From assembly GCA_036172665.1 (NCBI GenBank), contig CM069870.1, positions 22,852,001 through 22,916,000 of the forward strand: a DNA stretch of 64,000 nucleotides, written 5' to 3'. Positions 221-62,899 of the stretch are shown piece by piece. The notes under the pieces were generated by a model. That model made no database searches. It saw only the letters and a list, made by a program, of their open reading frames with translations, and was not told the DNA's origin. Position numbers and translations under genes: made by a program. This stretch comes from Prosopocoilus inquinatus (lineage: Eukaryota; Arthropoda; Insecta; Coleoptera; Lucanidae). Position 1 is the stretch's first letter; each line of letters starts with the position of its first letter.

Positions 221-1374
221 TTTCAATTCTTCTTTCGCACTAAACGACATGAAATGGAACGCAAACTCCGTACCGACTCTTTAAGTGTATCTTATACCTT
301 CGATTTTTTATCGTTAAGCATTCAATACGGAAATAATGTAAACAAGTGCATAAATATTTATTTGAGCGAACATTTTTCCCCCACGACAAACAAATCTCTG
401 AAAAACGTGAAATTTCTCTCAAGTCGACAACACCGCGTCACACCGTCGACAACGAGTGGTGGGAGATTTAAAAATTGTTCGGCAAGCTAAATACAAATTT
501 GAACTTTAATGAACTTTAAACCAAGTATATTATTTAAAACTATGGAAATAAATTAACGGGGAATAGTTAAAAGTAAGTTCTGGGTGTCATTTTCTAAATC
601 GCAACATTTATTCTTATTCCTTCATTAAATAAATAATCAGTCACGTAAAAAAATATATGAGAATCCTTGTTAGTTATGGTACTTATCAGAATATGAAACA
701 AATAAAAATGCTTTTTAAAAACGAGCTAAAAGAGTAATTTATTGACTTACTTTGACGTTTCGCAAAAATAATTATTTGCTTCATCAAAAGTGAATAACGG
801 AAATATAAACAATTTAACCTACTAAATTTTTTAGATTAATTGTGAAGAGATTGTTAGGGTAAAAAAGAAAATTATCAGCAAAGATATAACTTGTAAACCA
901 AGAATATCATTATTGATGCGGCCAGGCCCGTCTTAACATAAACTCCAGTATTTACTGCAACTGTTAGGGAAATCCTGCTAAAACCTAACTAGAGCATGCA
1001 AATAAGTTGTTGTAACAAAAATTACAACAATTCTAACAATAACAAACCAATAAAATAACATAATAATATAGTTTTTCTAATAAATAACCAGGGGAGTTTC
1101 CGATTATTATGTCTCATTTAATGAACTTAGAAAACTACAAAATATATCGTTCAAACTTGCAAAATCTGTTCTTTTATTAATTGAATTATTACACATTTTT
1201 ATTTTACACATTTCAATAAATCTACGTTTAAACGTGTTTAGACAAATATGTTTTGTTAAAAGTGAATGTTCTACTAAGATTGAATGACTCTCATTCTTAT
1301 TTTGGATATAATATTTATGCTGATCTAACCTTTTTTAAACTTTTGGCTAGTTTCACCTATATATATATATATGC
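221..1374. other. AT-rich stretch with no recognised feature
   Basis: No ORF resembling a known protein, no RNA gene and no clear repeat is visible. The overlapping short ORFs near 240-490 lie on both strands and have no recognisable domain. A short AT dinucleotide run at about 1,361-1,372 marks the left edge of the next element. Confidence 0.5.
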
Positions 1375-1431
1375 TGTAGTATTCTTCCGGGTAGTCCTCC
1401 GCGTTGAGTTCTCTAAAGAACTATTTGTCTT

Positions 1432-1474
1432 CTGAAAACGTTTCGGCAAGGTCTCACTTGCCATCTTCAGGTCT
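1432..1474 (-). ncRNA. Hammerhead-ribozyme-like core, left arm, opposite strand
   Basis: This is the inverted copy of the core at 2,031-2,075. TCTTCAG at 1,464-1,470 is CTGAAGA on the - strand, followed by the same GGCAAG/CTTGCC stem and GAAAC. It differs in the bases before the cleavage position (GTTTTC rather than GTTGTC), so the two arms have begun to diverge there. Confidence 0.42.
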
Positions 1475-2030
1475 TCGCTGCTGCTTACCTGCTTCTGCTC
1501 CTCGTCGTTACTCGAGTCACAGTGGCTTCTGGTCGCGCTGGTGGTGGTTTAAGTACCGTGTTGCGGTCACGCGTCGTTACGCTTGGTGGTTTTTCCGCTT
1601 GACTTCTTGTTGTTGGTTGATTGGGTCGTGCCTGTTGACTGCTTTCTCCTAATCCTGATGGTCCGGGGTTCGCTGGTTTCTGGCTTCGGGTTACTGGTCC
1701 TCGACGGTCGGTGGATTTTCGGATCACTGGCCTCCAGGTGGGTGGTAGTCGTAAGGCATCATCTCTGGTGTTTAAGTTCATCTGATGTTTCTCGATTTCT
1801 ATCGCTTCTCGGATGATGCGCCAGAAACCAGCGAACCCCGGACCATCAGGATTAGGAGAAAGCAGTCAACAGGCACGACCCAATCAACCAACAACAAGAA
1901 GTCAAGCGGAAAAACCACCAAGCGTAACGACGCGTGACCGCAACACGGTACTTAAACCACCACCAGCGCGACCAGAAGCCACTGTGACTCGAGTAACGAC
2001 GAGGAGCAGAAGCAGGCAAGCAGCAGCGAA

Positions 2031-2075
2031 GACCTGAAGATGGCAAGTGAGACCTTGCCGAAACGTTGTCAGAAG
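2031..2075 (+). ncRNA. Hammerhead-ribozyme-like core, right arm
   Basis: CTGAAGA at 2,034-2,040 is followed by a stem II hairpin (GGCAAG at 2,042-2,047 pairing with CTTGCC at 2,054-2,059), then GAAA at 2,060-2,063, then CGTTGTC ending at 2,070, which gives a GTC cleavage triplet. These are the conserved pieces of a hammerhead core in the right order and spacing. Stem I between the upstream GCGAAGAC and downstream AGAAGAC flanks is not obvious, so catalytic competence as a single unit is doubtful. Confidence 0.5.
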
Positions 2076-2126
2076 ACAAATAGTTCTTTAGAGAACTCAA
2101 CGCGGAGGACTACCCGAAAGAATACT

Positions 2127-2131
<5 letters not shown>

Positions 2132-2184
<53 letters not shown>
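2132..2184. repeat. TA dinucleotide microsatellite
   Basis: About 53 bases of uninterrupted alternating T and A adjoin the right end of the inverted-repeat element. A short matching run lies at its left end (1,361-1,372), which suggests insertion into, or expansion from, a TA tract. Confidence 0.9.
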
Positions 2185-2186
<2 letters not shown>

Positions 2187-2337
2187 AATTTTGAATAAGA
2201 ATTTTTTAAATTAAATTTATTTCAGTTATAAATAATTTGTCTGAAAATAATACTGTATGGTCAATAATCACAAAGCAACACAAAACCTGTGGCTGTAATC
2301 CAAATAAATAGTGAGAAAACCCCTCGACCACACTAAT

Positions 2338-2409
2338 TCACTGAAAGCGAATACGTATTTCGGTAACGAAGTTACCATCTTCAGCGCTAAACTGATATCA
2401 GTTTAGCGC
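2338..2409 (-). ncRNA. Hammerhead ribozyme motif, - strand
   Basis: This is the mirror copy of the + strand motif in the other half of the palindrome. TCTTCAG at 2,378-2,384 gives CTGAAGA on the - strand, and the same stem II, GAAA and palindromic stem III follow. A transcript from either strand therefore contains one ribozyme and one antisense copy, which could pair with each other and compete with ribozyme folding. Confidence 0.65.
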
Positions 2410-2455
2410 TGAAGATGGTAACTTCGTTACCGAAATACGTATTCGCTTTCAGTGA
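2384..2455 (+). ncRNA. Hammerhead ribozyme motif, + strand
   Basis: CTGAAGA at 2,409-2,415 is followed by stem II (GGTAAC 2,417-2,422 with GTTACC 2,426-2,431, loop TTC), GAAA at 2,432-2,435, and TACGTAT ending at U16.1 (2,442) with U at the cleavage position (2,443). Stem III, ATACGTAT, is a perfect palindrome, as in dimeric hammerheads where two copies share that helix. Stem I can form from AGCG just before the core with CGCT at 2,444-2,447, extended by ACTGA with TCAGT around an internal loop. All conserved core bases are present. Confidence 0.68.
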
Positions 2456-3650
2456 ATTAATGTGGTCGAGGGGTTTTCTCACTATTTAACTGTATGGTCA
2501 GTTAAACTAATAATAGTTGAAATTTTGTGACTTTTTGGTTGATAGGAATTAAAATCTACCTGACCATGTAGGTTTATGATACCAATTTGTGATTAAATTA
2601 CCATTTTGTCTGACAATATTTACATCTAAAAAACTTATGGAATTATTATTTTCTTTTTCTACAGTAAATTGTAACCTATTACGAAAAGAATTAAATTTAT
2701 TTAAAATATAACATTATCATGAGGTAAAATTAATAAAATATCGTCAACATATCTATAATATAAAGTTAAATCAAAAGGTAACGAATTAATGATACTTTTT
2801 TCTAATTTTTGCATAACAATTTCAGCTAAAGCTGGAGAAAGAGGTTATCCCATTGCTGTACCAAAAGTTTGTTTATAAAATTTATCATTAAATGCACAAT
2901 AAGAAGTATCAAAACATAAGGTTATTATTTCTATAAAATTATTATATGAAATGTCAGTATATTCTTTAATTTCTAACCACCTATCTTTAATACTTTGTAA
3001 AGCAAGACCTTTTGGAATATTAGTGAACAAAGAAACGACATCAAGAGAAAGAAGAATATTATCATTTGGTACAACAATGTTTTTCAATTTTTTAACCAAT
3101 ACAAAAGAGTTTTTTACAAAAAAGATTCAGATTTACATGTAAGATTGTTAATAATTTTAGAAATAAATTTTGACAAAAAATATAGAGGAGAGCCAATAGT
3201 GGAAACAATAGGTCTGAGAGGAATGTTTGGTTTATCAATTTTAGAAATACATTATAATTTTGGTAAAATAGGATTCTGTACTTTTAGAGACTTTGCAACA
3301 TTATCACTAATTTCTAAAGCTTTTTGTAATTTATTGATCATAGCTAGAGTTTTTCTTTGATAATTTTGTGTAGGATCGTGATTGATTTCTAAATATGTGG
3401 TACTGTGGTATCGGACCACATGGTATTAACTTTAGGAAGATAATTTTCTTTATTTAATAAAACAGTAACGTTACTTTTATCTGATGTTGTAACTATAATA
3501 TTAGGATTTGCTTTAAGAAATGCTTTACATTGTAAAAGATCACGAATTAAAATCTTATATTTTGATTTGTGAAAAGTCTGATCAATACTTTTAATTTAGT
3601 TTAAAAAATCATTACAAAATTTGTTTCTAATTTGTTGCGACCCATACTAT

Positions 3651-43912: not shown

Positions 43913-44158
43913 ATTATCGTCAGTAAACATTTCAAATCCGTTGAAATTTAGAAAGATATTTGTTTATTATTCCGATTTTTAGAAAGGTAATGCAATGGAA
44001 TCAACCAACTAAAATGAATAAAAAATGAAGTTGATTCTTGTCACTATCAATCCATAGTGAAACGTTGAGTCCTTTTCCAATCATAATTCTGTCCGGTTTA
44101 AGATTAGAAACTTTTTACTTAAAATGAATTCCTGCATGACTGGACGAATAAATTGTAA

Positions 44159-44354
44159 GTACAAAGGTTTTTTTTTTAATCTCGAACCCGACAGAAATAT
44201 GATGGGAACACACTCAACGTTTCGCTATAGATTTATAGCCTCGTCAGGAGTGAAAAAAAGCGCAACGTTGAGTGAGTTCCCATCATATTTCTGCCCGGTT
44301 TGAGATTAAAAAAAAACTTTGTACTTACAATTTTCATCGGACAAGAACCAGCTT
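44159..44354. mobile_element. Hammerhead-bearing inverted-repeat retroelement, 14-bp target duplication
   Basis: CGAATAAATTGTAA is present at 44,145-44,158 and again at 44,355-44,368. Between them are inverted arms (44,159-44,220 and 44,264-44,324) that share TTTTTAATCTCGAACC, GACAGAAATATGATGGGAAC and CACTCAACGTT, and then an unpaired right-hand tail of 30 bases containing TTTTCATCGGACAAGAAC. The left arm carries a hammerhead core on the - strand. A second copy with the same tail is at 52,807-52,990. Confidence 0.85.
44205..44255 (-). ncRNA. Hammerhead-ribozyme-like motif
   Basis: On the - strand CTGACGA (44,241-44,247) is followed by stem II GCTATA-AATC-TATAGC and GAAAC, then CGTTGAGTGTG. 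Core bases and stem II are intact, but the base at the cleavage position is G, which hammerheads do not normally cleave after. Stem I is weak. The relative at 54,330-54,400 has C at that position. Confidence 0.5.
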
Positions 44355-44435
44355 CGAATAAATTGTAATTCATCATTTTTTTATCATTTATAATCGTTGG
44401 ATTTTTATACTTGTCGCAGTTCATTTGATTAGATA

Positions 44436-45066
44436 TACAGGGAAGGGCAAAAGTATGGAACCGGCTTAATATTTCGAAAACTGTTTGACGCATCTACTTG
44501 AAATTTGGTATGTGATTTAGAAATCAATAAAACCTATATTACCAATTTGTTTCAATTGTTTATCTGCTCTTGTTTCTGAGATCCAACGCCTACTTATTTT
44601 TTTTTAATGACAACCTGCTGTTTTTTTCCTATATGTAATAGCTCGTTTAATTCTCTAAACGACCACATAAAAATAATTATCAATTACATAAGAAAATTTT
44701 CGAGAAAAAAACGTTTGAATGAAAACGTTAGGAAAAATGGTTTATTGTTTGATATTCGACAAAAATTTTAGTTTTAACAAAAAAACTGTAAAACCACAAG
44801 ATTATGATAATAGATAATAGATAAATATTTTTATGTGGTCGTGTAAAGAATTAAACGACCTATTAAATAGAGGAAAAAAATCAGCAGGTTGTCATTTAAG
44901 AAAAATGAAGTAGGCATTGGATCTCAGAAACGAAAGCAGATAAACAATTGAAACAAATTGGTAATGTAGGTCCTATTGACTCTGAATCACACACCAAATT
45001 TCAAATAGATACGTCAAACAGTTTTCGAAATATTAAGCCGGTTCCATACTTTTGCCCTACCCTGTA
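44436..45066. mobile_element. 630-bp foldback element with TACAGGG ends
   Basis: TACAGGGAAGGGCAAAAGTA at the left and the inverse of TACTTTTGCCCTACCCTGTA at the right bound arms of about 270 bp, and TA flanks both ends. Matching inner blocks include AATATTTCGAAAACTGTTTG and CAATTTGTTTCAATTGTTTA. There is no coding region. Confidence 0.88.
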
Positions 45067-45203
45067 TAAATTCAGACTTACAGATTATATAACTCGAATC
45101 CAAGTTTAAAGAAGAAACATTTTATTTACCGAACAGTGTAAATGCGAAAAGTATGAAGTTTTTACCTTTTACTGTATCGGCTGCTTCTGTGTCTTTGACC
45201 TTT

Positions 45204-45580
45204 ATTATTAGACCGCGTGCACATTGTTGAAAGGGAAACAGACTTTTTAGACAGCGTTTTTAACTGCAACTGGTTCAGGGTGCTGCTTTTAATTGCTTCG
45301 TCTTCTTTTGTTTTAATAAGTTCTACTGACTAGATAAAGCACGAGGAAAATATTCTCTATAAATAAAACGTTACTATTAGGCTGCGTGCACATTGTTCAA
45401 AGGTAAACTTTTTCGACAGCGTTTTTAACTGAAACTGTTTCAGCGTGCTGCTTTAAATTGTTTCGTTCGTCTTGTTCTATTTTTAAAAGTCAATAATGTG
45501 CATTCGCTACTGACAAGATAAAGCACGCGAAAAATATTATTTAACAAAATTAATATAAATAAGACGTTACGTAGAAAATT
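45204..45580. repeat. Two-copy tandem duplication, about 170-200 bp
   Basis: GCGTGCACATTGTTNAAAGG, GACAGCGTTTTTAACTG, CAGNGTGCTGCTTTNAATTG and GATAAAGCACG recur in the same order, with the second copy carrying a short insertion. Confidence 0.85.
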
Positions 45581-46499
45581 GTTTTCGTTTTCACAGTGTT
45601 CAGGCGCTCTTACACACATACCCTCTTGTAAACCCGACGATCACAATAGGGCTAATTGAAATAGAATGTAATTTTACAATAAAGCAAGTATACAAAGGAC
45701 GAGTGACACTTTCTGCAGTATTAAAAAAAACCAGATGTATCGAGGAAGAACGAGTTTGAATAATGATTATGTAACGACTTTGATTTTGTGTAACACGTAA
45801 TAACATTAACAGGTGGCCACGTAGGTATAGTATACAAGAAAAGAACACACACAACCTTTTCTAAGGGATGGAAGTGCGTGAAATTACAAATCGATAGTAT
45901 CATAATTAATAATACAAAACAGTTTGCTTTACTTTTGTATCCTTTTAGAATTTATGTCATTTTTATGGGTTTGGGTTCGTGGAACTGTGGGTACGTGCGA
46001 TTAGTTTTTTTTTCAATTCAAAGAAAATTTAAACAAGAAAATAAATATCAATGTAGTTGAAAAGATTAATTTGAACAAGAAAAATGATTTAACATCAAAA
46101 TATTTTAACTTCTCACCCCTAGCCTTTCGCCATTTGATGACGCATTTAAATTTGCCGCTTATACACTCAGCTTAAAATTCTAGTATACCGATAGATGTCG
46201 CCTACTATATAGCACAATGGACAATACAGGCACATGCGCATTTTGTAAATAAAAGAACAACCATAATTAGACACTTTTTTTTTAAAAGATCAGTGTTACC
46301 AACTTAGCGGATTTCCCGCTGGTTCTGGCTTAGTTAAAATCATATTTGGAGTCAGAATTTTCAATCTAGCTACTGGCGGATTTTCTGGCTTATTTACGTG
46401 TTTTGTTTAGAGGCTTATTAATTTTATAAAGAAAAAATCAAATGACAGTAACGAAGTTAGAATTTCCACCAAGCAATGACCTATCGAATTTCAACGATG
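45581..46499. other. No recognised gene
   Basis: Overlapping ORFs on both strands at 45,600-46,060 have no known domain or splice-supported context, and are probably fortuitous. Confidence 0.4.
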
Positions 46500-46650
46500 G
46501 TATCCTACAAATTTACAAACCACCCTAGATCGTTAGAGACTATCCTAGAAAGTTAGAAACTATCCTGGAACATTAGAGAATATTAGAAACTATCCTACAA
46601 CGTTCGACTATCCTAGAAAATCAGAAACGATCCCAAAGCCTTAGAAACTA
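46500..46650. repeat. Minisatellite of a 20-24 bp unit
   Basis: Imperfect repeats of TTAGAAACTATCCTAGAA run from about 46,525 to 46,645. Six or so diverged copies are visible. Confidence 0.75.
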
Positions 46651-46808
46651 GACATGTTAATAGACGTAAAGGGAAGGTATTTATTAACGTTTTCGAATCA
46701 GTTGCGCGGCTCCACTCGTAGTATTTGCATCTTGTTTTAACCTCAGGTGATAAAACGTGATGAAAATACTCTGAGTGCAACTAGTACAAGTGAATCGAAA
46801 CCGCTCTA

Positions 46809-46966
46809 GATCAAGATGCACAGGCGGCGTTGCCCATTTGGGCGAGTTTATCTCTAAAAATAGGATTTTTAATCTCTTACGTTAAATGATCAAGATGCAC
46901 AGGCGGCGTTGCCCATTTGGGCAGTTTATCTCTAAAAATAGGATTTTTAATCTCTTACGTTAAATG
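46809..46966. repeat. Recent 79-bp direct duplication
   Basis: The unit starting GATCAAGATGCACAGGCGGC occurs twice back to back (46,809 and 46,888). The copies are identical except for one missing base in GGGC(G)AGTTTATC. Confidence 0.95.
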
Positions 46967-47189
46967 AGACGTTTGACACTGCAGCCATTTACAAAACTTG
47001 ATTGATTGAGAATTTTGTCGAATTGAAATAATTTCACAAAAAAAAAAAAATGTTGGCAGTAACTAATTCCGTAATGAAATACCTATTGCAGGGTTGCCGG
47101 TTTGAGCAAAATTCCGCTACATTTTAGACTTATTTTGATGTTTAAAAATTTTCTTCGGCGCCTGATTTGGGCTGCTTTTGTTGTCTTTA

Positions 47190-48360
47190 ACGACAAACAA
47201 CATTTTTACCAAACGATCTTTTGTCTTTTACTCATTTCATATTTGTACTTTCTTTTTTGTTTTAAAGAATTAATGTTTTGCATTTTATTCACGGCCCGTT
47301 TGTTTCCTGCCAATTTCTTTCTTGACTTGCAAAAGTTTCCGTCGTCGTTTCTTCATTAATCTTTTTTTTGTCTTTGGATTCGTAGGTCTTTCATTTTTTC
47401 TTTTGTTTCACGCATTTATCTTATTATCAACAATTAACTTCTTGAAATTCTGTTTTTCTTTTAAATTAATTTTATATCTCTGTATTTCTCTTTTATTTTG
47501 TTTTTGTCTAATTAATTTTACACATTTTGTTGGTTGACGCTTTTTTACAATTACCTTTTTCTCTATTAGTTTTTTTTTTTCATCTGGAGATTCATTTGTT
47601 TTTGGTTCGTTCATCTAAGCAGTCGATCTTCTTTTGTTTTTCTTTCTTATTCTTTATGCATTTGCACTATGTATTTCTCTTTAGTTTTTGACTCTTTTTT
47701 ACAGTTATTTTTGTTTCCCAAGAGCTCTTTTTTATTTGCGAAAACTTTCAACGATTTTCATTTTCTTGTTCACCTAGTTTCCTTCAATTTCCGTTTTTTC
47801 TTTTTAAATTCATTTTATGCCGTCGTATTTCTCTTTTGTTTATGCATCTATGAAACTGATTTTTCACATTTTGTTGACTTGAAGATAACTGTAAAAAGGC
47901 GTTATCTTTTGTTTTATGCTGGATTTTTTTTTAATTTTTCGTCGGGAGATTGATCTGGTTTTTGTTCATCTTAGTCGGCAATCTTCTTTTGTTTCTTCTT
48001 TTTTTTCGTACTGTGTATTTTTCTTTTTTTATAAAATTGATTTTGCGAATTTTATTGAGGCTTGTTTGTGGTACATCGTTTTTCATTTGTTTTCGAGTCT
48101 CATTTGTGATCTTTCGTTTCGCGCACTGTATTTCGTTTCCTTTTTGTTTTCGTTTTTTTTTTTATGGTATTATTGACTTTTCTACAGTTTGCTTTAATTT
48201 TCTACGAATTGATCTTCCATTGTTTTTGTTTTTGTTCACCTCACGTCTTGTATTTTGTTGCCACTGCTTTCATTTCTCTTTTGTTTCTGACTTTTTGGCA
48301 GGTTTAATTTATTTTTTTTAATTTGTTCTTTTGTTTATGACTTGGCGCCTTTCGGGTACA
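47190..48360. repeat. T-rich low-complexity repeat tract
   Basis: Recurrent CTTTTGTTT, TTTCTCTTTTGT and CACATTTTGTTG words give spurious phenylalanine-rich ORFs on the + strand. It belongs with the tracts at 29.8-31.7 and 50.2-51.2 kb by composition and shared words. Confidence 0.6.
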
Positions 48361-49020
48361 TTTTGTCAACAGGTTGACGACATTGTCTGCAAGAAATCTG
48401 ACCTATTGATCATGATCCTAAACGTCAAATGACTTAACGGTTTATGACAGCTCACAGATTATTATTTTTTAAAAATATGGCTGAATTTCAACCTCTCTCT
48501 GACGGATTAATGCTGTGGTAGTTGGCAACACTGCAAAAGATACAGTCCACTTCAAGTATAGAATACACGTGTTTGAAAACAGTGTAGTCTTATTTATTTA
48601 TGAAAATATCACCATCCTATTACAGAGAATCGTCAATCAGTCAATCAACACAATCGATTTCAGCAGAAAATCCCTAGTACTCCGAAAGAGCCACACTGCT
48701 TACAAACATTTTAAATATAGCTTCTTTTTCAGAAAGACAAACAACAGTAGACCATTAGTATAACTGAATTATTCAACACGTGAAGCCATTATAAATCAAT
48801 TCTCATAGACTTGAATAATAATAACAGAATGAAATTGACCGTCAAATTATATTAGAGAAGCTGTCTCTCTACAGCGTCATTTTGCACTTAACGTGCATAT
48901 TAAAATAACAATTATGTGTGTGTGACGTCATATCAGACTAAAAGTAGAATCATAATTGTGCTGTAGGTAGTCTCTATTATGTACTAATGAACACGATTGA
49001 TTTCTTTTCGTTTGTTACAG

Positions 49021-49082
49021 ATGAACAGGAAAGGGTGCAGAAAAAGACTTTCGTTAATTGGATCAATTCCTATCTATCCAAG
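49021..49082 (+). CDS. Msp300: Msp300/nesprin-1, start of calponin-homology domain 1
   Basis: This is the first exon seen of a giant actin-binding spectrin-repeat protein that, in animals, links the nuclear envelope to the cytoskeleton and to muscle Z-discs. An acceptor TTTGTTACAG precedes 49,021 and a donor GTAAGT follows 49,082. The exon starts with the last two bases of a split Asp codon and reads DEQERVQKKTFVNWINSYLSK, which is the first helix and actin-binding site 1 of the nesprin CH1 domain. The exon ends on a codon boundary. The upstream exon with the start codon is not identified. A CH1 domain of another family (dystonin, beta-spectrin) is less likely given the following exons. Confidence 0.93.
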
Positions 49083-50219
49083 GTAAGTAAGTCACGAAAC
49101 GGATGGATATCTTTAATTGACAGCGAAACGAAACTCAATCTTAATCTCGACCATCAAAGAAGCAATAAACACGAATGAGCTTAACCTGACAATATAATAT
49201 TTCTCTATCTCTCTCTGCTTTATGTTCATTGCAATCGATGGTTGGTTATGCTTATTATCTAAAAAAAAAAAAAAAATTATAATAAGAATAATGATTAATG
49301 ATAAAGAGGGGACGGTGTAAGTACCTAAGTGGTTATAGTATACAACATACCAAGCAGGATAGTTTTTAACTTTTGCAAAAGAAGTTTATGTTGCAGTTTA
49401 GCGGGTTTCGTGTTTGAGGTCGTTTATTTTGTGTGGGCAGTGTATACTATAGTTGCCTTGCACGTATAAAGTTGCCTGAAAGTTCCATCTGCATAGGTTT
49501 ACATGACCGTTATTTGTGCTTATTTCTAACCCCCGCCCCAAGTATTTTACGTTATTTATGCCGTGTGTATGATTAAGGCACAAAGTCTGTAATTTATATT
49601 CTACCTATATATATGTACTTGCAAAACCTAACTGATGCCTATTTTTTTTTTAATTGCTCAAACTGTATTACTGTTTTAAGTAAACTTTCCAGGGGCTAAT
49701 TTAAATATAATAAGGTATCATCAGCGAAATAAACAAATTGCACCGACTCTAATACGCTGTGATTATTGTATAGCCTCGCATAAAAAAATTCGAACACCAC
49801 CACCACTATCATCATCCCAATGATGCGAAAAACATTTCTTAATGAAATCCAGCCCAATCTTTTTGGTTGGCATTTGAAAATTAAATTAACAGCTTCGACA
49901 TTTGGTTAAAATTCAAGTTTAGAACCACTGGCGCGACTTGGTTGAGCAGTCGTAAAAGTACATTAATTAGCAGACTGCGGAAGTTCAGGCATTTGCTTTT
50001 TCTATTTGTTAAACACTACTTTGATAGGACCTTGTTACAAATACGTTTCACGTAGTTACTGTTCAAAGAGGAAAGTTTAATAATGTCTATTTTTGCCTAT
50101 CTACGCATAAGAGCCTATTTTAGATAAAAATGCCTATACTGTGCCTTTTTTCTAAAAATTCTCAGAATAAAGTTTAAATTTGCATAAAATTGGTATAAAG
50201 GTTGAATCCAGTCGCTTTT

Positions 50220-51229
50220 AACAAAAATAAAAGAAAATAAAAGCAAATGTCTCTTCTTTCATCTCCGACTTTTGTTTTTTTTTTAACTAGCAGTCGATCG
50301 CCTTCTGTTTTGTTTAAATTTTCTTTAATTAAATTGGAGTTCATTTTATTTGACACTTTAATTCCGTCGATTGATCGCCGATTTTGTTTTCTTTCTCTGT
50401 TATTCGATTTGATTTTATTTATTTTTTATTATTAACTAATTAATTGTTAATTTGCGATCAACGATTCCATTTGATTTAATTCAATTTTTAATTTAATCAA
50501 TTGACCAACCTTCACTTTCTTTTCTCTCTTTGATTCGATTTCATTCGATTCGTTGATTTATCATCTTTTGTTCTTGTTTTCTCTTCTCTTTAAATTTTAT
50601 TTGACGCGATTTTATTTTTTTTAACTATCATTCGACCGTCTTTTGTTTTATTGTATTTTCTTTTAATAGATTGGAGTTCATTTTATTTTACATTTTAATT
50701 CCTTCCTTCCTTTTCTTTCTCTGTTATACGATTTAACTTTATTTTATTTATTTATTTTTTATTATTTTAACCGTTGGTCTTTCTTCTTTAGCTAATATTT
50801 CGCAGACTGAATTTTTAATTGCGTTCGTGATTTTTTTTTCATCGATTTGACCTATCGTTGGTTTTAGCGCAATATTTTATTTTCTTCCTCGCTACATCCA
50901 CGATCGACTTTTGTTTTTCTTTTCGTTCGTTTTGACTGTATTTCATTTATATTTTAATAATCAATAGCTCATCTATTTATTCTTTTTCTTAGGATCTTAG
51001 GATCGAGTTAACACCCTGTAAAATGTTTAATTCAAGTACAATTATTCGTAAATCTTCTACTTTTCTTTTAATGAACTATTCAGAAAGACAAGAATTCATA
51101 ACTAAATCCGACCCCGTAAGAGACCCTTAGAGGTTCATCGGCCCCCAGCTCAGCCCTCTGGGTTCTTGGACCTCTTTCTAGTCTTCATTGACACCAATGG
51201 GTCGATTCGACCCCGTTGGGAACCCCTGG
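50220..51229. repeat. T-rich diverged repeat in Msp300 intron, with hAT-like right end
   Basis: CGATTTGATTTTATTT, GATCGCC and CTTTTGTTTT words repeat as in 29.8-31.7 kb. At the right edge TCGACCCCGTTGGGAACCCC ends in CTG; its inverse begins CAGGGGTTCCCAACGGGG, a common hAT terminal repeat. The matching left end was not found. Confidence 0.55.
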
Positions 51230-52806
51230 TCCACACCAGTGGAGCAATAAATTAGACAATAATGTCCAGTTGTACCAAAACGTTTAAGATGAACTTTAAA
51301 TGCCCCTTAGAATGTGAATTACATTAACGTTATGTAACCTTAAATGCCACATTATAAGCACTACTTAAATTTAAGGTCGGCTTAACTGCTTGGTGCAACT
51401 GGCCATAAGTAAGTTTCACTTTTTGGTTTTTACGCAAAATTCAACGCGTGTTTTAGGCAAAAATTGTTCGGTTGCATTTCACAGGTGCGGTTATTTACGT
51501 GGATTGACCGACGCGACGCGACGTTTGTTTGCATTGCAGATCAAGTTCCTTAGGTCAAGGAACGTACGCAAACGAACGTATAATAGAGGGAATTTCATAG
51601 GGGAATCTGTGTCAAATTTCTAAAATGTATATTATTTAATTGTTTAAATGAATCTAAACAGATAATTTCGAATTTTTACAAAAATGTCAAAGAAACGGAC
51701 AAATAAGTGCTTTAATTTCAGAATGGATTACAAATGTATTGCATTAATCTAATATTAAAAGAAACAACGATCAGTTCATACATTCCTCGCTCAGTCAGTT
51801 TCTAGAAAAGATCAGTTCTATCATAATCAACAATTCGAAAAGGCTGTTTAAGATAAATAATAAAAACATCTTTTTAATTTACTTGATTTTTTCATTGTAA
51901 TGAATTCCGATATGTAAATATTTTGGAGACTATTTATATTTTCTTTGTGCTTATTCTGCACATATATGAGCCTTTTTCAGACGCCTAAAATCGATTTTTT
52001 TAGTGCCTAAACTTCCACAGACTATTAATTAGAAATTAGATAGATAAAAATTAGAGTTACAGAAAAGTTTACATATTTGGTTGCTAATACCGTCTTGATT
52101 TCAATGGACAAGCAACAAACAGCCCCTACTGTTTGCTACTCCACTATTTTAATTTGATATCCACCGAGATCACATCCCTTTACGTTTTTTTGCATTCTAC
52201 TTCCTTCCAAGTCTGAATGTAACTTATTACTGCACTTAACGTTTCGGCAGTTCTCAAAATGTGGTGTCCGCCTGATTATTCCGGGTGAGAGACACTCTTG
52301 AAAAAAGTGACTAATAAATTTTCGATCCCTTTTACCTTCAGGAAACAACTGTTTAAGTTGTGGTGGTTTCCCACCTTTAGAATCCCTACACGAGCTAAAA
52401 TTGCATTCGGATTCATTTCCCTACAACAGTCGTTATTTCGTGGATATTTTTTAACTAGTTTTACTTATTCGGCAGTTTGGCTTCGTTAAATAAAACCATT
52501 TTTATTGATTGCATTTATGTAACACTCTGGTTTTCCATTTTCCCCGATTTCAGAACGAAAATAAACGACGTAGAAAATTGAGAATTTTAATTTCCTTTTT
52601 TAATTTTCGCGTATTTTCATGCAGAAGATGGGCAAACCAATGTACTCGTCAGTATGTATTGTTGCCTACCCTACAGGCGGTATCCATAATTTGTTTTGTC
52701 TAGGAATATACATTTTCACGATCAGGCAATTTTTCTATTTGTTGAATGTGCAAACAATTATCCAAAAAAAAGGAGACCGACGTCTAAAGATTACTAATTT
52801 ATTATC

Positions 52807-52990
52807 TACAAGGTTTTTTTAATCTCAAACCGGACAGAAAAATGAAGGGAACACACTCAACGTTTCACTATAGATTTATGGCTATAATCTATAGCGAAAC
52901 GTTGAATGTGTTCCCTTCATTTTTCTGTCCGGTTTGAGATTAAAAAAAACTTAGTACTTACTATTTTCATCGGACAAGAACAAACTTCAA
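52807..52990. mobile_element. Hammerhead-family inverted-repeat insertion, 12-bp target duplication
   Basis: TAATTTATTATC is present at 52,795-52,806 and 52,991-53,002. The arms share TTTAATCTCAAACCGGACAG, GAAGGGAACACACTCAACG and CTATAGATTTAT. The unpaired right tail of 34 bases contains TTTTCATCGGACAAGAAC, as at 44,325-44,354. The centre has collapsed so that the CTGACGA box is missing and no complete hammerhead remains. Confidence 0.85.
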
Positions 52991-53165
52991 TAATTTATTA
53001 TCATTATTTAAATTCCACATCCATGGGTGTACATTAAAGTACAGGCAAACCCAAAACCACAGTCGTCATTATTACGTACATAATTTTTGACCAGTTTCTG
53101 AAAAATTCAACAGTTTAATTTCACTAATGTTTTTTTTTTAATTCCTTAAAAACGTTACGGATGAT

Positions 53166-53970
53166 CAAGGCCCCCGCGAGACCAAAAGCCGCCCGCGTGC
53201 TACTTCATATTTTGACGCCCTTTGACAGATGAGTTTGGGGGGCACGCGAAAACGATCAATTATCGAAATTATTTAAAAAAAATGAAAAGAAATAAAAAAA
53301 ATTGAAAAAAAATTTACACTTAGGGAAAATTTTTAAAGCTTTTCATTTTTTTAAGCGCTTTCCAAGCATTTTCCTTGACTTTTTCCAACATTTTCCTTCA
53401 CTGTTTTTCAAGTTCCTAGCTGCCGCGGGCCCCCAAGGGCGAAGGGGGCCACGCCACAGAGTGCAATGAGACCGGAGACAGGTCCTCTGCGACCTCTGCC
53501 GTAGAAGACCCCTGTTCAACCCCCCCCCCCCCCCCTCCCCCTCCCAGAAAGCAAGTGGACGAAGCCCGCTTGTTATTAATAATAGAAAAAAAGAAACAAA
53601 ATCACAAAAGCAAATTCTAAAAACTTAAAAAGTAAAATAAAAAAAATTTTTTAATAAATAATAAAATTATTAAGTAAATTAAATGTTTTATGAAAAATTT
53701 TGCACTAAAATTAAACTTTTCTACTCTTAATTTCCGCAGTTAACTGTTCTATTTTAGTCAATGTTTTGCCGTGCGGTTGACGGCTTTATCAAGATAGTTG
53801 AGTCTTGTGGACAGTTTTCTCGAATAATTTTTACCTGACAAGAAACTATTTCCCGTCAATTTTTTTGTCGAAGAAAATGACAAAACAGTGGCCAAGAGGC
53901 TAATTGGCGCCCCTTAAACATGGCGCCCGCGTGCATTGCACGCTTTGCACACATGGTTACGGGGGCCCTG
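53166..53970. mobile_element. hAT-type non-autonomous element with exact 8-bp target duplication
   Basis: CAAGGCCCCCGCG at the left and the inverse CAGGGCCCCCGTAACC at the right are short inverted ends, and CGGATGAT is exactly duplicated at 53,158-53,165 and 53,971-53,978. The interior of 805 bp includes a poly-C tract at about 53,519-53,535 and GC-rich ends. No transposase is seen. Confidence 0.88.
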
Positions 53971-54329
53971 CGGATGATAAAGTAATAAATAATTTTCGAC
54001 TTCACAATTTCTTAACATGGCTAAATATAGGCTGATAAAATCAAAATATGTCTTCCTAACTGAATGGACTTGTCATTACGGGGTTCCCTGATTATTTTCA
54101 TTAGAAAACTTTCCGATTGAATGCGATTAGGTGACATTCCAGTTTTCCATTTTTCCCGATTTTAGAACAGAAACAAAATTTAGTATTATTTTTTTTATTT
54201 GATGAAAAAGATAGGCAAAATCAATGAACTGGGCAGTTTGTATGGTACCTGAAAGTTAAAGAGAAAAGTAAATATTGAATTTTTAGGTTATGAACCTAAC
54301 CTTTTTTAGACGGGTGTGCTCATTGAGTG

Positions 54330-54400
54330 GAGTGATGATGAATCATAACCTGACGAAGCTATAAATCTATAGCGAAACGTTGAGTGTCTTCCCATCATAT
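54330..54400 (+). ncRNA. Solitary hammerhead-ribozyme-like motif in Msp300 intron
   Basis: CTGACGA (54,350-54,356) is followed by stem II GCTATA (54,358-54,363)-AATC-TATAGC (54,368-54,373), GAAA (54,374-54,377), stem III ACG with TGT around a TTGAG loop, and a GTC cleavage triplet ending at 54,388. ATGATG upstream (near 54,335) can pair with CATCAT downstream (54,393-54,398) as the distal part of stem I, but the proximal stem I bases do not pair. It lies about 90 bases upstream of the next Msp300 exon on the sense strand. Confidence 0.55.
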
Positions 54401-54486
54401 TTCTGTCCGGTTCAACATTTAAAAAACTTTGTAAACCCTGAAATCCTTGCTTTGGTTATAATTTTTGCGTTGCTTCTCGATTTCAG

Positions 54487-54582
54487 CGAGTTCCACCGCT
54501 TAGGATAGAAGATCTGATCGACGATTTAAGGGATGGCACGAAACTCCTGGCTTTACTCGAAGTTCTGTCCGGGGAAAAACTG
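54487..54582 (+). CDS. Msp300: Msp300/nesprin-1, CH1 continued
   Basis: The acceptor is TTTCAG before 54,487 and the donor GTAAAG after 54,582. The 32 codons read RVPPLRIEDLIDDLRDGTKL then LALLEVLSGEKL, the conserved central part of nesprin CH1 with its DGTKLLALLEVLSG signature. Both ends are on codon boundaries, so it joins SYLSK from the previous exon directly. Confidence 0.95.
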
Positions 54583-54650
54583 GTAAAGATGCGGATCATT
54601 ATCAAACGAGGGGGCTTAAGCCCATTAACGACGACATTTTTGCGTTTCAG

Positions 54651-54827
54651 CCCGTGGAGAGAGGCAGAGTTCTCCGTCGTCCGCACTTCCTCAGCAATCA
54701 CAACACGGCTTTGCAATTCCTCACCGGCAAGCGAATCAAATTGGTGAACATAAACGCCAGCGATTTGGTAGATGGCAGGCCGCCAATCGTGCTCGGGCTC
54801 ATCTGGACGATCATCCTGTATTTTCAG
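54651..54827 (+). CDS. Msp300: Msp300/nesprin-1, end of CH1
   Basis: After a 68-bp intron, the 59 codons begin PVERGRVLRRPHFLSNHNTA and contain KLVNINASDLVDGRP and VLGLIWTIILYFQ. These are the third and fourth helices of CH1; the VLGLIWTIILYFQ end is near-invariant in nesprins. The donor GTGCGT follows in phase 0. If the 68-bp intron were retained, the frame would shift, so splicing is required. Confidence 0.96.
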
Positions 54828-55927
54828 GTGCGTGCCTTTTCCTCTTTCCTCGTCTTTCTTTTTTCATTTGCGAACATTCCCCCCGCGACTAGAAAGGTGT
54901 GTTAATGATTATATTATTTGAAACATACGTCAGGTAGCTAGCTAGTGCTTTGATACTTTGATTAGCAATTATTATTATTAATTCATTCACTGGTAAAATT
55001 TAGTTCGTCATTATTCTGTAATTAATTAATTACTAATAGATCACCACCAAGTAGTACAATCAATTTGTTAATGTAAATAAATTATAATTTATTTACGGAT
55101 GTGAGATGGTTAACTAGGAAACTTTGTGCTAAAAACAATGGGCTTCATTTTATTCACACGTGACCTCGTACTTCAATTAACTAACTATCAAATTAGTAAC
55201 TTTATACATTTAGGTAATGATGGCGCAGTTCTGCCTATCACGTGTATTGTTAGTGACCTAATTGTCAGGCTGAACTTGGTCACGTGGGATACAATCAATT
55301 ATGAAGGGTCTGTAATTATACTTATATAATTTGCGTTTTAAAAATTAAAAATTAATTAAATTAAGAAAGCACTTTTGATATTTTTTATTTGCCTATATGC
55401 GGAAATGATCGTGATTGAAAATCAGTGAGTGGCATTTAAGTAGCGAGTTGTAATTAGTTCTTGTGCCTGGATTTGCATTTACTGTCAGTTTATCCGCATA
55501 TCTCAGGCTTAATGAAGAATATTAATGAACTAGAAACATGAACTTAACCGCAAATAAATTCTCTACGACATTTCCCATTAACGGTTCCATCGATTACTTA
55601 TCATACGAAAAAAAATATTTAGTTTCCTGCTTGGCCGTTTCTATCTTCCTGGCTTCTTTCCATTCCATTATAAAGTATTTTTATTATTATTGCTTCTGCA
55701 CTTATTTTTTTATGTACGTTCTAAAGCTTCGAAAGAAGGATTTTGGATATAAACTGGTAAGTGCAAATGAAAATACCTAAACAGCACCGAATAGTAGCAT
55801 ATTTTTATTATCTTTTTCGATTCGCACACCAAATTTCTTTGACCTCTCTCTATATTAAAAAGAAAAAGAAAAACGAAAGGGCTGGAAAGCTATTGCTTAT
55901 TACTTCAATGGCTTTTTTTGTGTTTAG

Positions 55928-56082
55928 ATCGAGGAGAACAGCAGGTTTCTGGATTATCTTACGCACTGGGAAAGTACGAGCAGTTTAGAAAGCGCCGGCA
56001 CGACATCTTCCGCCGCCAAAGATAAATGGAAGCAAGGTGCGAGAAAGACTTTATTGCAATGGGTATCGAACGCACTTCCAAG
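55928..56082 (+). CDS. Msp300: Msp300/nesprin-1, CH1-CH2 linker and start of CH2
   Basis: Acceptor TGTTTAG, donor GTAAGC. The exon reads IEENSRFLDYLTHWE, then a Ser/Thr/Ala-rich linker of about 20 residues, then WKQGARKTLLQWVSNALP, the opening of CH2. The exon ends with two bases of a codon (AG) completed by T in the next exon to give Ser. The short, serine-rich linker is like that of fly Msp300. Confidence 0.95.
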
Positions 56083-56595
56083 GTAAGCCATTGTTTTTTT
56101 TTTTGGGGTATGTATAGCCATAATTAAAAGTAATGTCTCCCCAATAAAACTTTAAGGGGGTGATTCTAATCAGAGTTGCAAGTTGCAACAGGTTACGTTT
56201 CTACTACCGAGCATGTTGCACAACGTTGTGTTCTCCTACTACCGAACCTTGCCGAAGTTACAGCTTATTACCACGTTGCTAAGGAAGTATCGTTGTTGCT
56301 AGGTGGCAAAGACGATTAGAATGACCCCCTAAGTCGCTATCTAATAGGTAAAAAAACACTCCATGAATTTTATTTCACATACATATATATTTTGCATTTT
56401 ACTAACTATAATGGTGAGAAGGCCACAATTTAAAATTTGTAAGGGAGACATTACTAAAGAGTGTGACTGTACTTTCACGGCTTAATTAAACAATTTTAAT
56501 CTGATTTCTAAACTTTGAAAAATGTAGTAGATTATAAGATCACAAGATGGTGCTGCCCCCTTGATATCCAGTGCAATTTTCCTCTATCTCTCTTA

Positions 56596-56723
56596 GGGCC
56601 GGTTTTTCCATCACAAGTTAACTTTAACCTTCAGTTTATTGCCATGGAAACAATTGTCTTCGTACTTGTTACCCTGGAAATAAACCGAGAGTTAGGGTTA
56701 ACCTGTGATTGAAAAACCGGGCC
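56596..56723. repeat. MITE with GGGCCGGTTTTTC ends and TTA duplication
   Basis: The left GGGCCGGTTTTTCCATCACA and the inverse of the right GGCCCGGTTTTTCAATCACA are inverted, flanked by TTA (56,593-56,595 and 56,724-56,726), suggesting PIF/Harbinger. Confidence 0.85.
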
Positions 56724-58303
56724 TTAAAAAATGAAAGTTATTTAAAAAAAATAGAATCACCATATATATGTCAATAACTCAATTAGAGTCACTATATATA
56801 CCCAATAACATTCAATTATTCTTCTTATTTTGTTCGCTCCTATATTAGTATCAGTAATAAGTCTTATAATCATTGGTATCAGTGCTGACCTTGTTTTATT
56901 ATTACAGACTACGTCTAAACTACATTCCCTAATTGTATTTATTATTATCAGTCATGAGCTCAGTCCCATAGAGTGAAGGTTCAAGAATGCGCACGATATT
57001 ATAAATAATTTCCTTTTCCTTGCAATAAAGAAAACGGTAGTAGTGAAGAGAGTTCATAATTGTTTACATAAATGATTTCTGCCAATTAAAGGTAGACACA
57101 CGTATAATTATTTTTAACATTGTAAATCTATTACCGCCCCCCCCCCCCCCCAAAAAAAAAAAAAAACGCAACTTAACGATGGCGCCTCAATTAAGTCTTG
57201 CTCAACAGTTAATATCCTTCAAATGCTTAAATACAACTTGCGCGTCGTAATTGCGATAATTGCAACCGTAAGATGTAATTATTCCAGTCAGACACAAAGT
57301 ATGCGTGGTAATAAGAGTTTGGCAACGCCTTTTTCTGTCCGTCGGGAAATAATCTTAAAATTTGGTTATTTTTCTTGGCTGAGGAGAGTTTTTAAGTAAA
57401 ATAAATACTGCCCAGGTGAATTATTTTCGGCCAGTAATCGTTTCACTTTTAGCGAAATTAAAAATGCTTTTTTAATTTGCGCCAGTTGTAAATTAAAATA
57501 AACAAGAGAAACGGTATAGTTTTATGTTGATTTAATGTGTAAGAGAGTGACACGTTTATTTCTCACGGTGACGTGAGACATTCATGCATCGCTCTCTTAT
57601 ATTCGTGAAATTGGCATAAAGCTATATGTCATCTCTTGTTTATTATTTTTTAATCACAGCTTTAGTTACAGACGATTTTAATCAAGAGAATATATGCGCC
57701 ATTGAAATCTACCGCGTGACTGATGGCTGACTATTTCAATAAAATAGTTGATGAAGTTGACTTAAACATGTCAGCGTTAAACTTTATCAAAAAGATAACT
57801 ATCCTACATTTCCAACAATTTAAATACTCAATAAAAGGCTCTATTGCTGTTGGGTATTTTTTTTATAATAATAATAATTATTATTGCATTTCCTGTTACT
57901 TTCGCTTAAAAGCTATTTATTCCAAAAGTATGTAACTACATATAAGTAAGTTCGAAATGTTAATTTATTTTGGAAACGACGCCGAAACATCGATAAAGTA
58001 GCTTCCTATTATAATTGGGGAATATGAAGTTTAATTTGCGATAGACAGATGGCGCCACCTGAATCGATAACGCTCGCCTTTATCATTTTTATACTCTTAT
58101 TCCTATTTTATTTTGTATTAGAGATTTGTTTATCCTCATACGTAAAATTATTTTACTATTAATTAATTATTAGGCTGTAAGGACTCGTTTTTTACAAAAG
58201 AAAAATGTACCGGGTGATCAATGGAATTCATAATTAGAGGAGGATGTGATTGGTTCTATTTTGTGATGTGTGGTTGGACACAATAAGAAATAAATAATAA
58301 GTT

Positions 58304-58595
58304 ATCAAAATGTATTGGAGACTGTGGTTTGTAGTACAAAGAAAATGGATTTAACCTCCTAACCATAAAAAAAATTGTTTAAAAAACGAAATACATATTT
58401 CGGCAGCTATGCTGTCATCTTCAGTAGATGCCTTCTCCTTGATCACAAGAGAAGTCTCCTCTTTTCTTTCTTTTCTTCTCTTTCATGAGAAGACTTCTCT
58501 TGTGATCAAGAAGAAGGCATCTACTGAAGATAGCAGCACAGCTGCCCAAATACGTATTTATTTTTTCTAACAAACTTTTTGTGGTTAGGAGGTTT
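58304..58595. mobile_element. Hammerhead-bearing inverted-repeat retroelement, 11-bp target duplication
   Basis: AATAATAAGTT is present at 58,293-58,303 and 58,596-58,606. Inside come about 49 unpaired bases (58,304-58,352) and then an inverted repeat from AACCTCCTAACCA to GTGGTTAGGAGGTT, centred near 58,474, whose inner part mirrors TTGATCACAAGAGAAG. The left half has a hammerhead core on the - strand and the right half a decayed one on the + strand. The arrangement of left tail and palindrome matches the insertion at 2,264-2,488. Confidence 0.82.
58390..58440 (-). ncRNA. Hammerhead-ribozyme-like motif
   Basis: On the - strand CTGAAGA (58,417-58,423) precedes a stem II hairpin (ACAGC with GCTGC-type pairing, one mismatch), GAAA (58,397-58,400) and the near-palindromic TATGTATTTC. 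The sister copy on the + strand has CAAA in place of GAAA and is probably dead. Stem I is not evident. Confidence 0.5.
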
Positions 58596-59111
58596 AATAA
58601 TAAGTTGACATTATTTTGTATGGATGCTGGTTTAAAATTTTTTAGAATATTAGATGGGCTTCCATAAAACAAATCCGTTCATTACCAATCATTAAAAAAA
58701 ATTGTCACATTTCTGACAATTATTTTATTTTAATTTCATACTGTAATCCCGTGTTGCCAACTTTTTAGAAATTATCACAGCCTGCTTTAATTATAAATTC
58801 CGTTGATCTCGTGGTATAATTCCAATCAATTGCAAATATTTTTTGACGCACGGCAACACTGTTGGTGAAACAGGTTTGCAGCGTTGCTCATCGTGAAGAT
58901 TTACTTTTGGTAATCGTTTGGCTCACTTTTTTCACGGCCAGCTGAATTGATATGACATATTATGCGGTCAGCCCAAAGAGTTTTAAAAAATGTTTTTGGA
59001 AAAAATGAAAAGCGTGTGTTAAGTGGCTCCCTCAGATTCAAAACTAGTGTCAAAATTATTGTGATTTTGAAATTTCTGGTCATGAGAAATGTCAATTCGC
59101 CCATGACATTT

Positions 59112-59237: not shown

Positions 59238-59340
59238 AGTTGTCAAAATAAGCGTCGATGTCGTAACCATGGTAACACCAACACTTCTTATTATTATTAT
59301 TATTATTTTTAGAAAAATTTTGTGCAAATCGTTTTTGATT

Positions 59341-59429
59341 GCAGTGAGAACCTCGAGCAGCCTCTGGACAGCTGTTTCAGCCCTGCTTGGGGCTTCTTCA
59401 GCAGAAACGTAGCTCGACATTCCCACTGC
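59341..59429 (-). ncRNA. Well-formed hammerhead ribozyme, opposite strand
   Basis: This is the inverted copy of the motif at 59,614-59,702. TCTTCAG at 59,395-59,401 gives CTGAAGA, TTTC at 59,375-59,378 gives GAAA, and GAC at 59,667-equivalent position 59,367-59,369 gives the GTC cleavage triplet. Stems I, II and III are conserved, with only a few base changes between the copies. Confidence 0.8.
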
Positions 59430-59613
59430 AGACCAAAAACGACTTGCCCAATTTATTTATTGCATGGGGGACTCATTAGGAGCAAATCCCGCTTCAATTT
59501 GTCTATCCTACTGCAATGTTAGGTCAAAAAGCGATAGTAAGATGTCGCTATTTTATATGTTCATCATTCTTACATCGCATTTGCGAATAAATTGGGCAAG
59601 TCGTTTTTGGTAT

Positions 59614-59702
59614 GCAGTGGGAATGTCGAGCTACGTTTCTGCTGAAGAAGCCCCAAGCAGGGCTGAAACAGCTGTCCAGAGGCTGCTCGAGGTTCTCACT
59701 GC
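59614..59702 (+). ncRNA. Well-formed hammerhead ribozyme
   Basis: Core: CTGAAGA at 59,642-59,648, stem II AGCCC (59,649-59,653) with GGGCT (59,660-59,664), GAAA at 59,665-59,668, palindromic stem III ACAGCTGT (59,668-59,675), and C at the cleavage position (59,676), a GTC site. Stem I is long: TTTCTG with CAGAGG next to the core, then CGAGC with GCTCG, then GCAGTGGGAA against TTCTCACTGC, with internal loops in between. All three helices and every conserved core base are present, as in type I hammerheads of Penelope-like elements. Confidence 0.82.
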
Positions 59703-62836: not shown

Positions 62837-62899
62837 GTAAGTGTTTTGTTAAAACGAAGCGGCGGCGACGTTTTGAGCTAAATTGATTTTGATTTTTAG

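What the first reader, a model, noticed from the sequence alone, without database searches (positions are those of the whole stretch)
44145..58606. Four loci share one design: tail, inverted repeat with hammerhead cores, 11-14 bp duplication
The insertions at 2,264, 44,159, 52,807 and 58,304 belong to at least three unrelated sequence families, yet all have a palindromic body, an unpaired tail of 30-49 bases on only one side, and exact target duplications of 11-14 bp. The shared design in unrelated sequences suggests a common mobilisation mechanism rather than common descent of the DNA. The 34-base tail at 52,957-52,990 is reminiscent of the short tail extension reported for Penelope elements.
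Basis: partly seen in the sequence, partly recalled or inferred. Interest (0 to 1): 0.88.

Follow-up and report, generated by a model that had tools for sequence, protein, structure and literature searches.

The report
One-tailed inverted Penelope-type retroelement insertions
Four short palindromic insertions in this animal genome look like footprints of Penelope-type retrotransposition in which one DNA copy is started from each cut strand, and their nearly strict one-long-end, one-short-end rule is a natural record of how these poorly understood elements insert.

Summary
All four loci are inverted repeats with exact 11-14 bp flanking duplications and a 30-49 nt tail on one side. E2 and E3 are one family, and complete hammerhead cores occur in only some arms. 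E1's empty site, with one copy of the duplication, was found at full length in 39 of 40 scored copies. A fifth, very unequal element lies at 44020-44119.

The shared mechanism is best read as Penelope-like (PLE) retrotransposition. An RT-encoding PLE, also present in the window, inserts the same way: 35 of 43 neighbouring hit pairs are head-to-head and 21 of 23 examined have one long and one short end. Family A gives 40 of 43. Of 89 genome-wide one-tail pattern loci, one matched on both strands. Both-tail exceptions exist.

Arms of one element share private variants, family-A junctions vary (27 strings in 37), and a short-ended arm can reach further 5' than its tailed partner, which argues against snap-back. 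Published work already has one-sided tails and two RT start sites; near-strict pairing and the short non-autonomous families are added here.

The parts
2252..2263 (.). E1 target duplication, left copy (12 bp)
   Evidence: identical to 2489-2500; single in 39 of 40 empty sites at full length
2264..2304 (-). E1 tail, 41 nt, belongs to the left arm
   Evidence: unpaired outer part
2305..2396 (-). E1 left arm with hammerhead-like core 2358-2384
2397..2488 (+). E1 right (short-ended) arm with hammerhead-like core 2409-2435
2489..2500 (.). E1 target duplication, right copy
2501..3416 (-). decayed Penelope-like ORF (PLE2) that holds E1; RT-like matches at 2719-3120 and 3117-3416
   Evidence: tblastn with PLE1; reading continues by eye across the joined flanks
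1358..2146 (.). 5'-truncated head-to-head copy of PLE1 (arms 1358-1684 and 1820-2146), both ends short, in (TA)n
44010..44019 (.). fifth element: left duplication TAAAATGAAT
44020..44119 (+). fifth element, family A: about 22 nt of inverted tail joined to a short-ended arm
   Evidence: tail remnant score reached by 0 of 5000 random 24-mers
44120..44129 (.). fifth element: right duplication
44145..44158 (.). E2 target duplication, left copy (14 bp)
44159..44226 (-). E2 left (short-ended) arm; hammerhead-like core runs to 44247
44259..44324 (+). E2 right arm
44325..44354 (+). E2 tail, 30 nt
44355..44368 (.). E2 target duplication, right copy
52795..52806 (.). E3 target duplication, left copy (12 bp)
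52807..52876 (-). E3 left (short-ended) arm
52886..52956 (+). E3 right arm
52957..52990 (+). E3 tail, 34 nt
52991..53002 (.). E3 target duplication, right copy
54350..54433 (+). family-A single arm with complete hammerhead-like core, no duplication of 9 or more found
58293..58303 (.). E4 target duplication, left copy (11 bp)
58304..58352 (-). E4 tail, 49 nt
58353..58461 (-). E4 left arm
58487..58594 (+). E4 right (short-ended) arm
58596..58606 (.). E4 target duplication, right copy

Best explanation
The insertions are products of Penelope-like (PLE) retrotransposition of short non-autonomous RNAs. The PLE enzyme nicks both strands of AT-rich DNA with a 9-16 nt stagger. Each nick primes a cDNA on RNA from the same source element, one beginning at an inner start site (short end) and the other about 30-40 nt further downstream (long end, the tail). 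Each cDNA stops independently toward the RNA 5' end, often in or near the hammerhead-like region, and the two cDNA ends are joined, giving a head-to-head palindrome whose outer ends are both RT start sites, flanked by a target duplication. Shown here: layout, duplications, one empty site, fixed paired ends, varied family-A junctions, co-derived arms, the same layout in an RT-encoding PLE. Inferred: that the PLE enzyme acts in trans on families A, E1 and E4, the double priming itself, and that one RNA molecule rather than sister RNAs serves both arms.
For: Layout and duplications. Empty site of E1: joined flanks with one 12-mer matched at full length without length change in 39 of 40 scored copies, the other 74/74. 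PLE1 has RVT_1 above cut-off, a 922-aa ORF, 35 of 43 neighbouring pairs head-to-head among the 150 top hits and long+short ends in 21 of 23 pairs that were not chosen by their ends (binomial 3e-5 if ends were drawn independently at 0.5). Family A: 40 of 43 rows long+short, 38 of 43 with a duplication of 9 or more against 4.8% of 841 shuffles. One-tail head-to-head pattern: 90 matches at 89 loci, one locus on both strands. Arms co-derived: family A within-element distance 1.03 against 2.05, 0 of 2000 permutations as low, 5 doubleton variants in both arms of one element against a permuted mean of 0.19; PLE1 4 of 4 doubletons in both arms of one pair (22 pairs). Unequal arms with the short-ended arm longer: L112, L113, L114, L116, L117, L119, 44020-44119. 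Similar distance from core to long end: 116-129 nt in four families. Published: two RT start sites bounding the tail, cleavage and extension of both strands, AT-rich targets, hammerhead at the start codon (PMC11167929).
Against: No sequenced intermediate or assay. The enzyme that moves A, E1 and E4 was not identified; their tails are not PLE1's. Exceptions: both ends long in L071/072, L104/L105 (one locus whose flanks are palindromic too), a C6 copy of E1, a C2 copy of E4, and two pattern loci; both ends short in window 1358-2146 and in one piece of the rearranged L106. Most family-A rows were picked as best matches to E3, which favours its design; with a body-only query 17 of 40 loci had a recognisable inverted partner, and of 12 of the other 23 only 3 were long+short, 7 had a longer 5' part with unseen partner and 2 were other. 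E4's top 40 are mostly one-armed matches. 70 of 150 PLE1 hits had no listed neighbour. E1 copies share one junction, unlike family A. Junctions show no excess of microhomology over blunt joins (mean overlap -0.2 against 0.9).
Confidence: 0.72

Rival explanations
1. Snap-back: one cDNA is made from the tail site, its 3' end folds back (for instance on a palindromic hairpin) and copies itself, giving the second arm. A self-priming origin for inverted PLE copies was proposed for a rotifer (PMC3846280, passages).
For: Arms of one element share private variants; E1's centre is a perfect palindrome; stem II can pair with itself.
Against: The second arm would have to end at the tail, not at a fixed site 28-41 nt short of it, and could not reach further 5' than the first. 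In L112-L114 the short-ended arm reaches PLE1 residues 359, 496 (plus a 265-338 piece) and 280 while the tailed arm stops at 669, 579 and 685 (chosen because open frames suggested it). By open frame the short-ended arm is the longer in 11 of 21 long+short pairs, shorter in 8, equal in 2. L116, L117, L119 and 44020-44119 have 20-60 nt tailed arms facing longer short-ended arms.
Confidence: 0.1
2. The palindrome is inherited as a unit: a palindromic source is transcribed or excised whole and reinserted, like a MITE or a hairpin RNA.
For: E1: all 40 scored loci match nearly the whole 225-bp unit including the junction, at 97-100% identity.
Against: Family A has 27 distinct junction strings in 37 readable elements, some of them point variants of the commonest; long-long, short-short and long-short distances between elements are equal (2.14, 1.95, 2.05), so arms have no lineages of their own; duplication lengths of 9-16 and a one-sided tail do not fit a TIR transposon. 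For E1 the ranking by whole-unit similarity favours the same junction, so this rival stays open there.
Confidence: 0.12
3. Retrozyme-type elements moved as circular RNA, with the palindromes as by-products.
For: Short non-coding units with type-I-like hammerhead motifs; published metazoan retrozymes are thought to be moved by PLEs (PMC7229834, PMC7761336, passages); one locus has tandem family-A units (L105).
Against: The published retrozymes are direct tandem repeats; here head-to-head pairs with one-sided tails prevail among the copies examined, the motif is incomplete in many arms, and arms extend 5' of the expected cleavage point, so cleaved monomers are not the template as such.
Confidence: 0.1
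4. Chance palindromes, foldback duplications of the locus, or assembly artefacts.
For: L104/L105 show a palindrome that runs on into the flanks.
Against: Flanking duplications above control, E1 empty sites, thousands of candidates per family (2505, 788 and 2180, of which 40 each were scored).
Confidence: 0.03

Closest known systems
Penelope-like elements with inverted pLTRs and a tail (rotifer Pen2a_Av; Drosophila virilis Penelope) - PMC3846280, passages
   Same: Head-to-head inverted terminal units, about 31-bp tail on one of them, 9-bp duplication, palindromes at the inverted junction.
   Different: Those flank an ORF; families A, E1 and E4 consist of little more than the terminal unit, and the one-long-one-short pairing is counted here over many copies.
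Anolis PLE PAc, in vitro (PMC11167929, main text)
   Same: Two RT start sites bounding the tail, both strands cleaved and extended, AT-rich targets, hammerhead-like motif at the ORF start codon. PLE1 has its ATG in the motif and its tail inside the ORF.
   Different: That work does not report, in the text I read, that each natural insertion uses one start site per strand.
Small hammerhead variants of PLEs that cleave as dimers (Lunse 2017; Cervera and de la Pena 2014) - cited in PMC7761336; the papers themselves are not held
   Same: Minimal type-I-like motif with reduced stem III.
   Different: Not testable here; activity unknown. Details recalled or from citing passages only.
Metazoan retrozymes (PMC7229834, abstract and passages)
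   Same: Short non-autonomous hammerhead-bearing retroelements proposed to depend on PLEs.
   Different: Direct tandem repeats rather than head-to-head pairs.

Membership tests
Penelope-like element (PLE1, host of the design) | Reverse transcriptase domain | tested here: met
   RVT_1 56.2 bits against cut-off 29.6
Penelope-like element (PLE1, host of the design) | GIY-YIG endonuclease domain | tested here: inconclusive
   GIY-YIG at residues 737-817, E 0.0072, 17 bits, below the cut-off 22.6; a homologue E 0.07, also below
Penelope-like element (PLE1, host of the design) | Inverted or tandem pLTR-type units with optional one-sided tail | tested here: met
   35 of 43 pairs head-to-head, 7 tandem, 1 tail-to-tail; 21 of 23 pairs one-tailed
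Non-autonomous PLE derivative (A, E1, E4) | Head-to-head units with one long and one short end, variable target duplication | tested here: met
Non-autonomous PLE derivative (A, E1, E4) | End sequences shared with an autonomous PLE in the genome | tested here: inconclusive
   Tails are not PLE1's; no partner PLE was identified. A longer form of A exists but could not be followed upstream
Hammerhead ribozyme | CTGANGA - stem II - GAAA core | tested here: inconclusive
   met in E1 both arms, E2 left arm, 54350, PLE1 arms with one extra base before stem II; absent in E3, imperfect in E4
Hammerhead ribozyme | Match to a curated covariance model | tested here: not met
   no hammerhead family
Hammerhead ribozyme | Self-cleavage | not testable with these tools
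   needs an RNA assay
Metazoan retrozyme | Direct tandem units of 170-400 nt | tested here: not met
   head-to-head pairs in the window and in 43 rows; one tandem locus, L105
TIR transposon or MITE | Fixed-length target duplication and symmetric ends | tested here: not met
   duplications of 9-16 bp and a one-sided tail

The most novel reading that the evidence does not exclude
Each Penelope-type insertion is made by a pair of unlike initiations: two RT subunits on RNA from one source, and plausibly on one RNA molecule, each extend one nicked strand, and one must start at the inner and one at the outer site. The tail is then not an optional extension but the signature of an obligatory asymmetric double start, and short hammerhead-bearing families are natural minimal templates for it.
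Probability: 0.42. Interest if true: 0.82.

Novelty: new variant of a known kind. Interest (0 to 1): 0.62.

Why it matters
How Penelope-like elements integrate is open; an in vitro study saw two RT start sites and extension of both strands but not the finished product (PMC11167929). Natural insertions here record the finished product: which start site each strand used, where each cDNA stopped, how they were joined, and whether they came from one source. The near-strict pairing of unlike ends and the co-derived arms are constraints that any model must meet, and thousands of short copies make them cheap to test. In seven searches of the held library I saw no listed paper on this pairing or on short inverted hammerhead families; key subscription papers are not held, so priority is uncertain.

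Tried and rejected
Rfam: best window hits are plant or animal miRNA precursor families far below their cut-offs, as expected of any strong hairpin; rejected. Viral contigs: no match to the family-A tail. Pfam with the C-terminal fragment: no family. Microhomology at the junctions: no excess (24 of the 27 readable strings, L047 and the two window strings left out), so I dropped the idea that stem II pairing joins the two cDNAs. Single arms: of 8 examined one had a duplication. Family-A rows dropped before the arm test: L011 (same insertion as L010), L104, L105 and both L106 rows; 38 of 43 remained. In one search the count 28 includes one unreadable junction (L093); 27 readable strings in 37, of which L009, L018, L019 and L025 look like point variants of the commonest. 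In one search, 22 of 23 PLE1 pairs could be aligned (not L071/072).

Not reached: the autonomous partner of A, E1 and E4; a second both-tail pattern (not completed); the upstream end of long family A (not completed). Unanswered for a busy machine: the genome search; I repeated requests later, in a different order, and waited with idle scripts.
Full report
Setting. The window is C2:22852001-22916000 of a 650-Mb genome in 173 contigs. It is animal, probably insect: the best named protein relative of the PLE fragment is from the beetle Carabus (2 proteins of 22 candidates).

Observation. Gapped self-alignment gives arms and tails of E1-E4, and the duplications are exact. Chance control: 52 of 63100 positions for an 11-mer. 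In a family-blind scan of 264 kb, 5 of 33 inverted repeats carry a non-simple duplication of 11 or more, E1-E4 and one copy in L047. E2 and E3 belong to family A. Hammerhead-like cores: 8 matches in the window by pattern, mean 0.4 in shuffles, of which two are in an unrelated inverted repeat at 59333-59710; E3 and E4 have none by that pattern. No Rfam hammerhead model matches.

Empty site. E1 lies inside a decayed PLE ORF. The 233-nt joined flanks matched 40 of 40 scored copies, of which the subject stretch was mostly about 11 nt longer; the 76 nt around the join, with a single ACTGTATGGTCA, matched at full length with no length change in 39 of 40 and 74/74 in one, at 95-97% identity. So the extra length lies elsewhere and the 12-bp duplication was made by the insertion.

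The same design in an RT-encoding PLE. A search with a PLE homologue found 4452 candidates, 150 scored. Among those 150, 43 neighbouring pairs within 8 kb: 35 minus-plus (head-to-head), 4 plus-plus, 3 minus-minus, 1 plus-minus; 70 hits had no listed neighbour. One locus gives an intact 922-aa frame with RVT_1 above cut-off and a sub-threshold GIY-YIG. I fetched the ends of 20 of the 35 pairs, plus two whole short ones, and added the window copy: 21 of 23 have one arm ending at the short site and one carrying the 30-nt tail, 1 has both short (window 1358-2146), 1 both long (L071/072). The tail falls on either side. The start codon lies in the hammerhead-like motif and the tail is inside the ORF, as published for an Anolis PLE. 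PLE1 sits in (TA)n, so its duplications cannot be read.

Family A genome-wide. 43 rows from 40 fetched places, L047 and the window: 40 long+short, 2 long+long, 1 short+short; duplication of 9 or more in 38 of 43, in 4.8% of 841 flank-shuffled pairs. The two long+long rows are one locus whose flanks are palindromic as well, and the short+short row is a piece of a rearranged element. These copies were mostly the best matches to E3 and so favour its design. A pattern that asks for head-to-head cores and one tail but says nothing about the other end gave 90 matches at 89 loci; only one locus matched on both strands, as a two-tailed element would (exact patterns, so mutated tails are missed). A two-tail pattern with a longer centre gave 3 matches at 2 loci. 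With a body-only query, 17 of 40 loci had a recognisable inverted partner by my count. Of 12 of the other 23, three are long+short with a 28-60 nt tailed arm (L116, L117, L119; duplications of 12 and 13 in the latter two, none of 9 found in L116), seven have a longer 5' part whose partner was not seen, and two are other.

E1 and E4 families. E1: 788 candidates, 40 scored, each matching nearly the whole unit at 97-100%, opposite-strand match starting at 25-42 except a C6 copy that matches from 1 on both strands, a two-tailed exception. E4: 2180 candidates, 40 scored, about a dozen inverted, the rest mostly one-armed matches over 1-152; one C2 copy matches from 1 on both strands; in the other inverted relatives the opposite-strand match begins at 26-37, so their tail is shorter than E4's 49.

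How the two arms arise. (a) Arms of one element resemble each other more than arms of different elements (1.03 against 2.05; 0 of 2000 permutations), and 5 doubleton variants sit in both arms of one element against a permuted mean of 0.19, with 5 others in two different elements and 22 singletons. In PLE1, 4 of 4 doubletons sit in both arms of one pair, with 9 singletons, over 22 pairs. (b) Junctions differ between family-A copies: 27 strings in 37, and the six strings shown differ too. E1's junction, by contrast, is shared. (c) In L112-L114 the short-ended arm reaches further 5' than the tailed arm; in L050 slightly, in L049 not. Since the tailed arm holds the tail and the short-ended arm holds 5' sequence that the other lacks, neither can be a copy of the other. 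Together these call for two separate starts on RNA from one source. With the published two start sites and two-strand extension, the simplest scheme is one cDNA from each nick, at unlike start sites, then joining. Both outer ends are then template 3' ends, which explains the head-to-head orientation, and a 3'-overhang stagger explains the duplication (inference).

What is known and what is new. The one-sided tail on inverted pLTRs, short duplications and palindromic junctions are published, with a self-priming reading (PMC3846280, passages). The two start sites and hammerhead at the start codon are published (PMC11167929, main text). New here, as far as seven searches of the held library show: the counted near-strict pairing, arms co-derived yet independently truncated, and short non-autonomous families of the same design. 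I file it as a new variant of a known kind.

Limits.

Noticed in passing
window 36864-38415: R2 RNA element match above the Rfam gathering score at 36891-37006 (minus) near a non-LTR RT-like ORF at 37684-38415.
   Followed up: no
window 59333-59710: Inverted repeat with 125-nt arms, 99% complementary, with a hammerhead-like pattern in each arm but no flanking duplication of 9 or more.
   Followed up: partly
L050, L068, L118, L120-L125: A longer form of family A with an internal (TA)n-A(n) stretch; PLE1 in L050 sits inside that (TA)n, and the uninterrupted copies serve as its empty site.
   Followed up: partly
L051-L090: All but one of the PLE1 ends read abut (TA)n (L077/078 has one end elsewhere), so this PLE appears to favour TA microsatellites.
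   Followed up: no
L117, L116, window 44020-44119: Very short tailed arms stop near the short start site (about 22, 28 and 35-39 nt), as if the outer cDNA were blocked where the inner one begins; too few to test.
   Followed up: no
window 61922-62881: Open frame of 319 aa resembling a spectrin-repeat or plakin-type cytoskeletal protein, by eye.
   Followed up: no
window 44434-45068: Nested inverted repeats next to E2, probably a terminal-inverted-repeat element.
   Followed up: no
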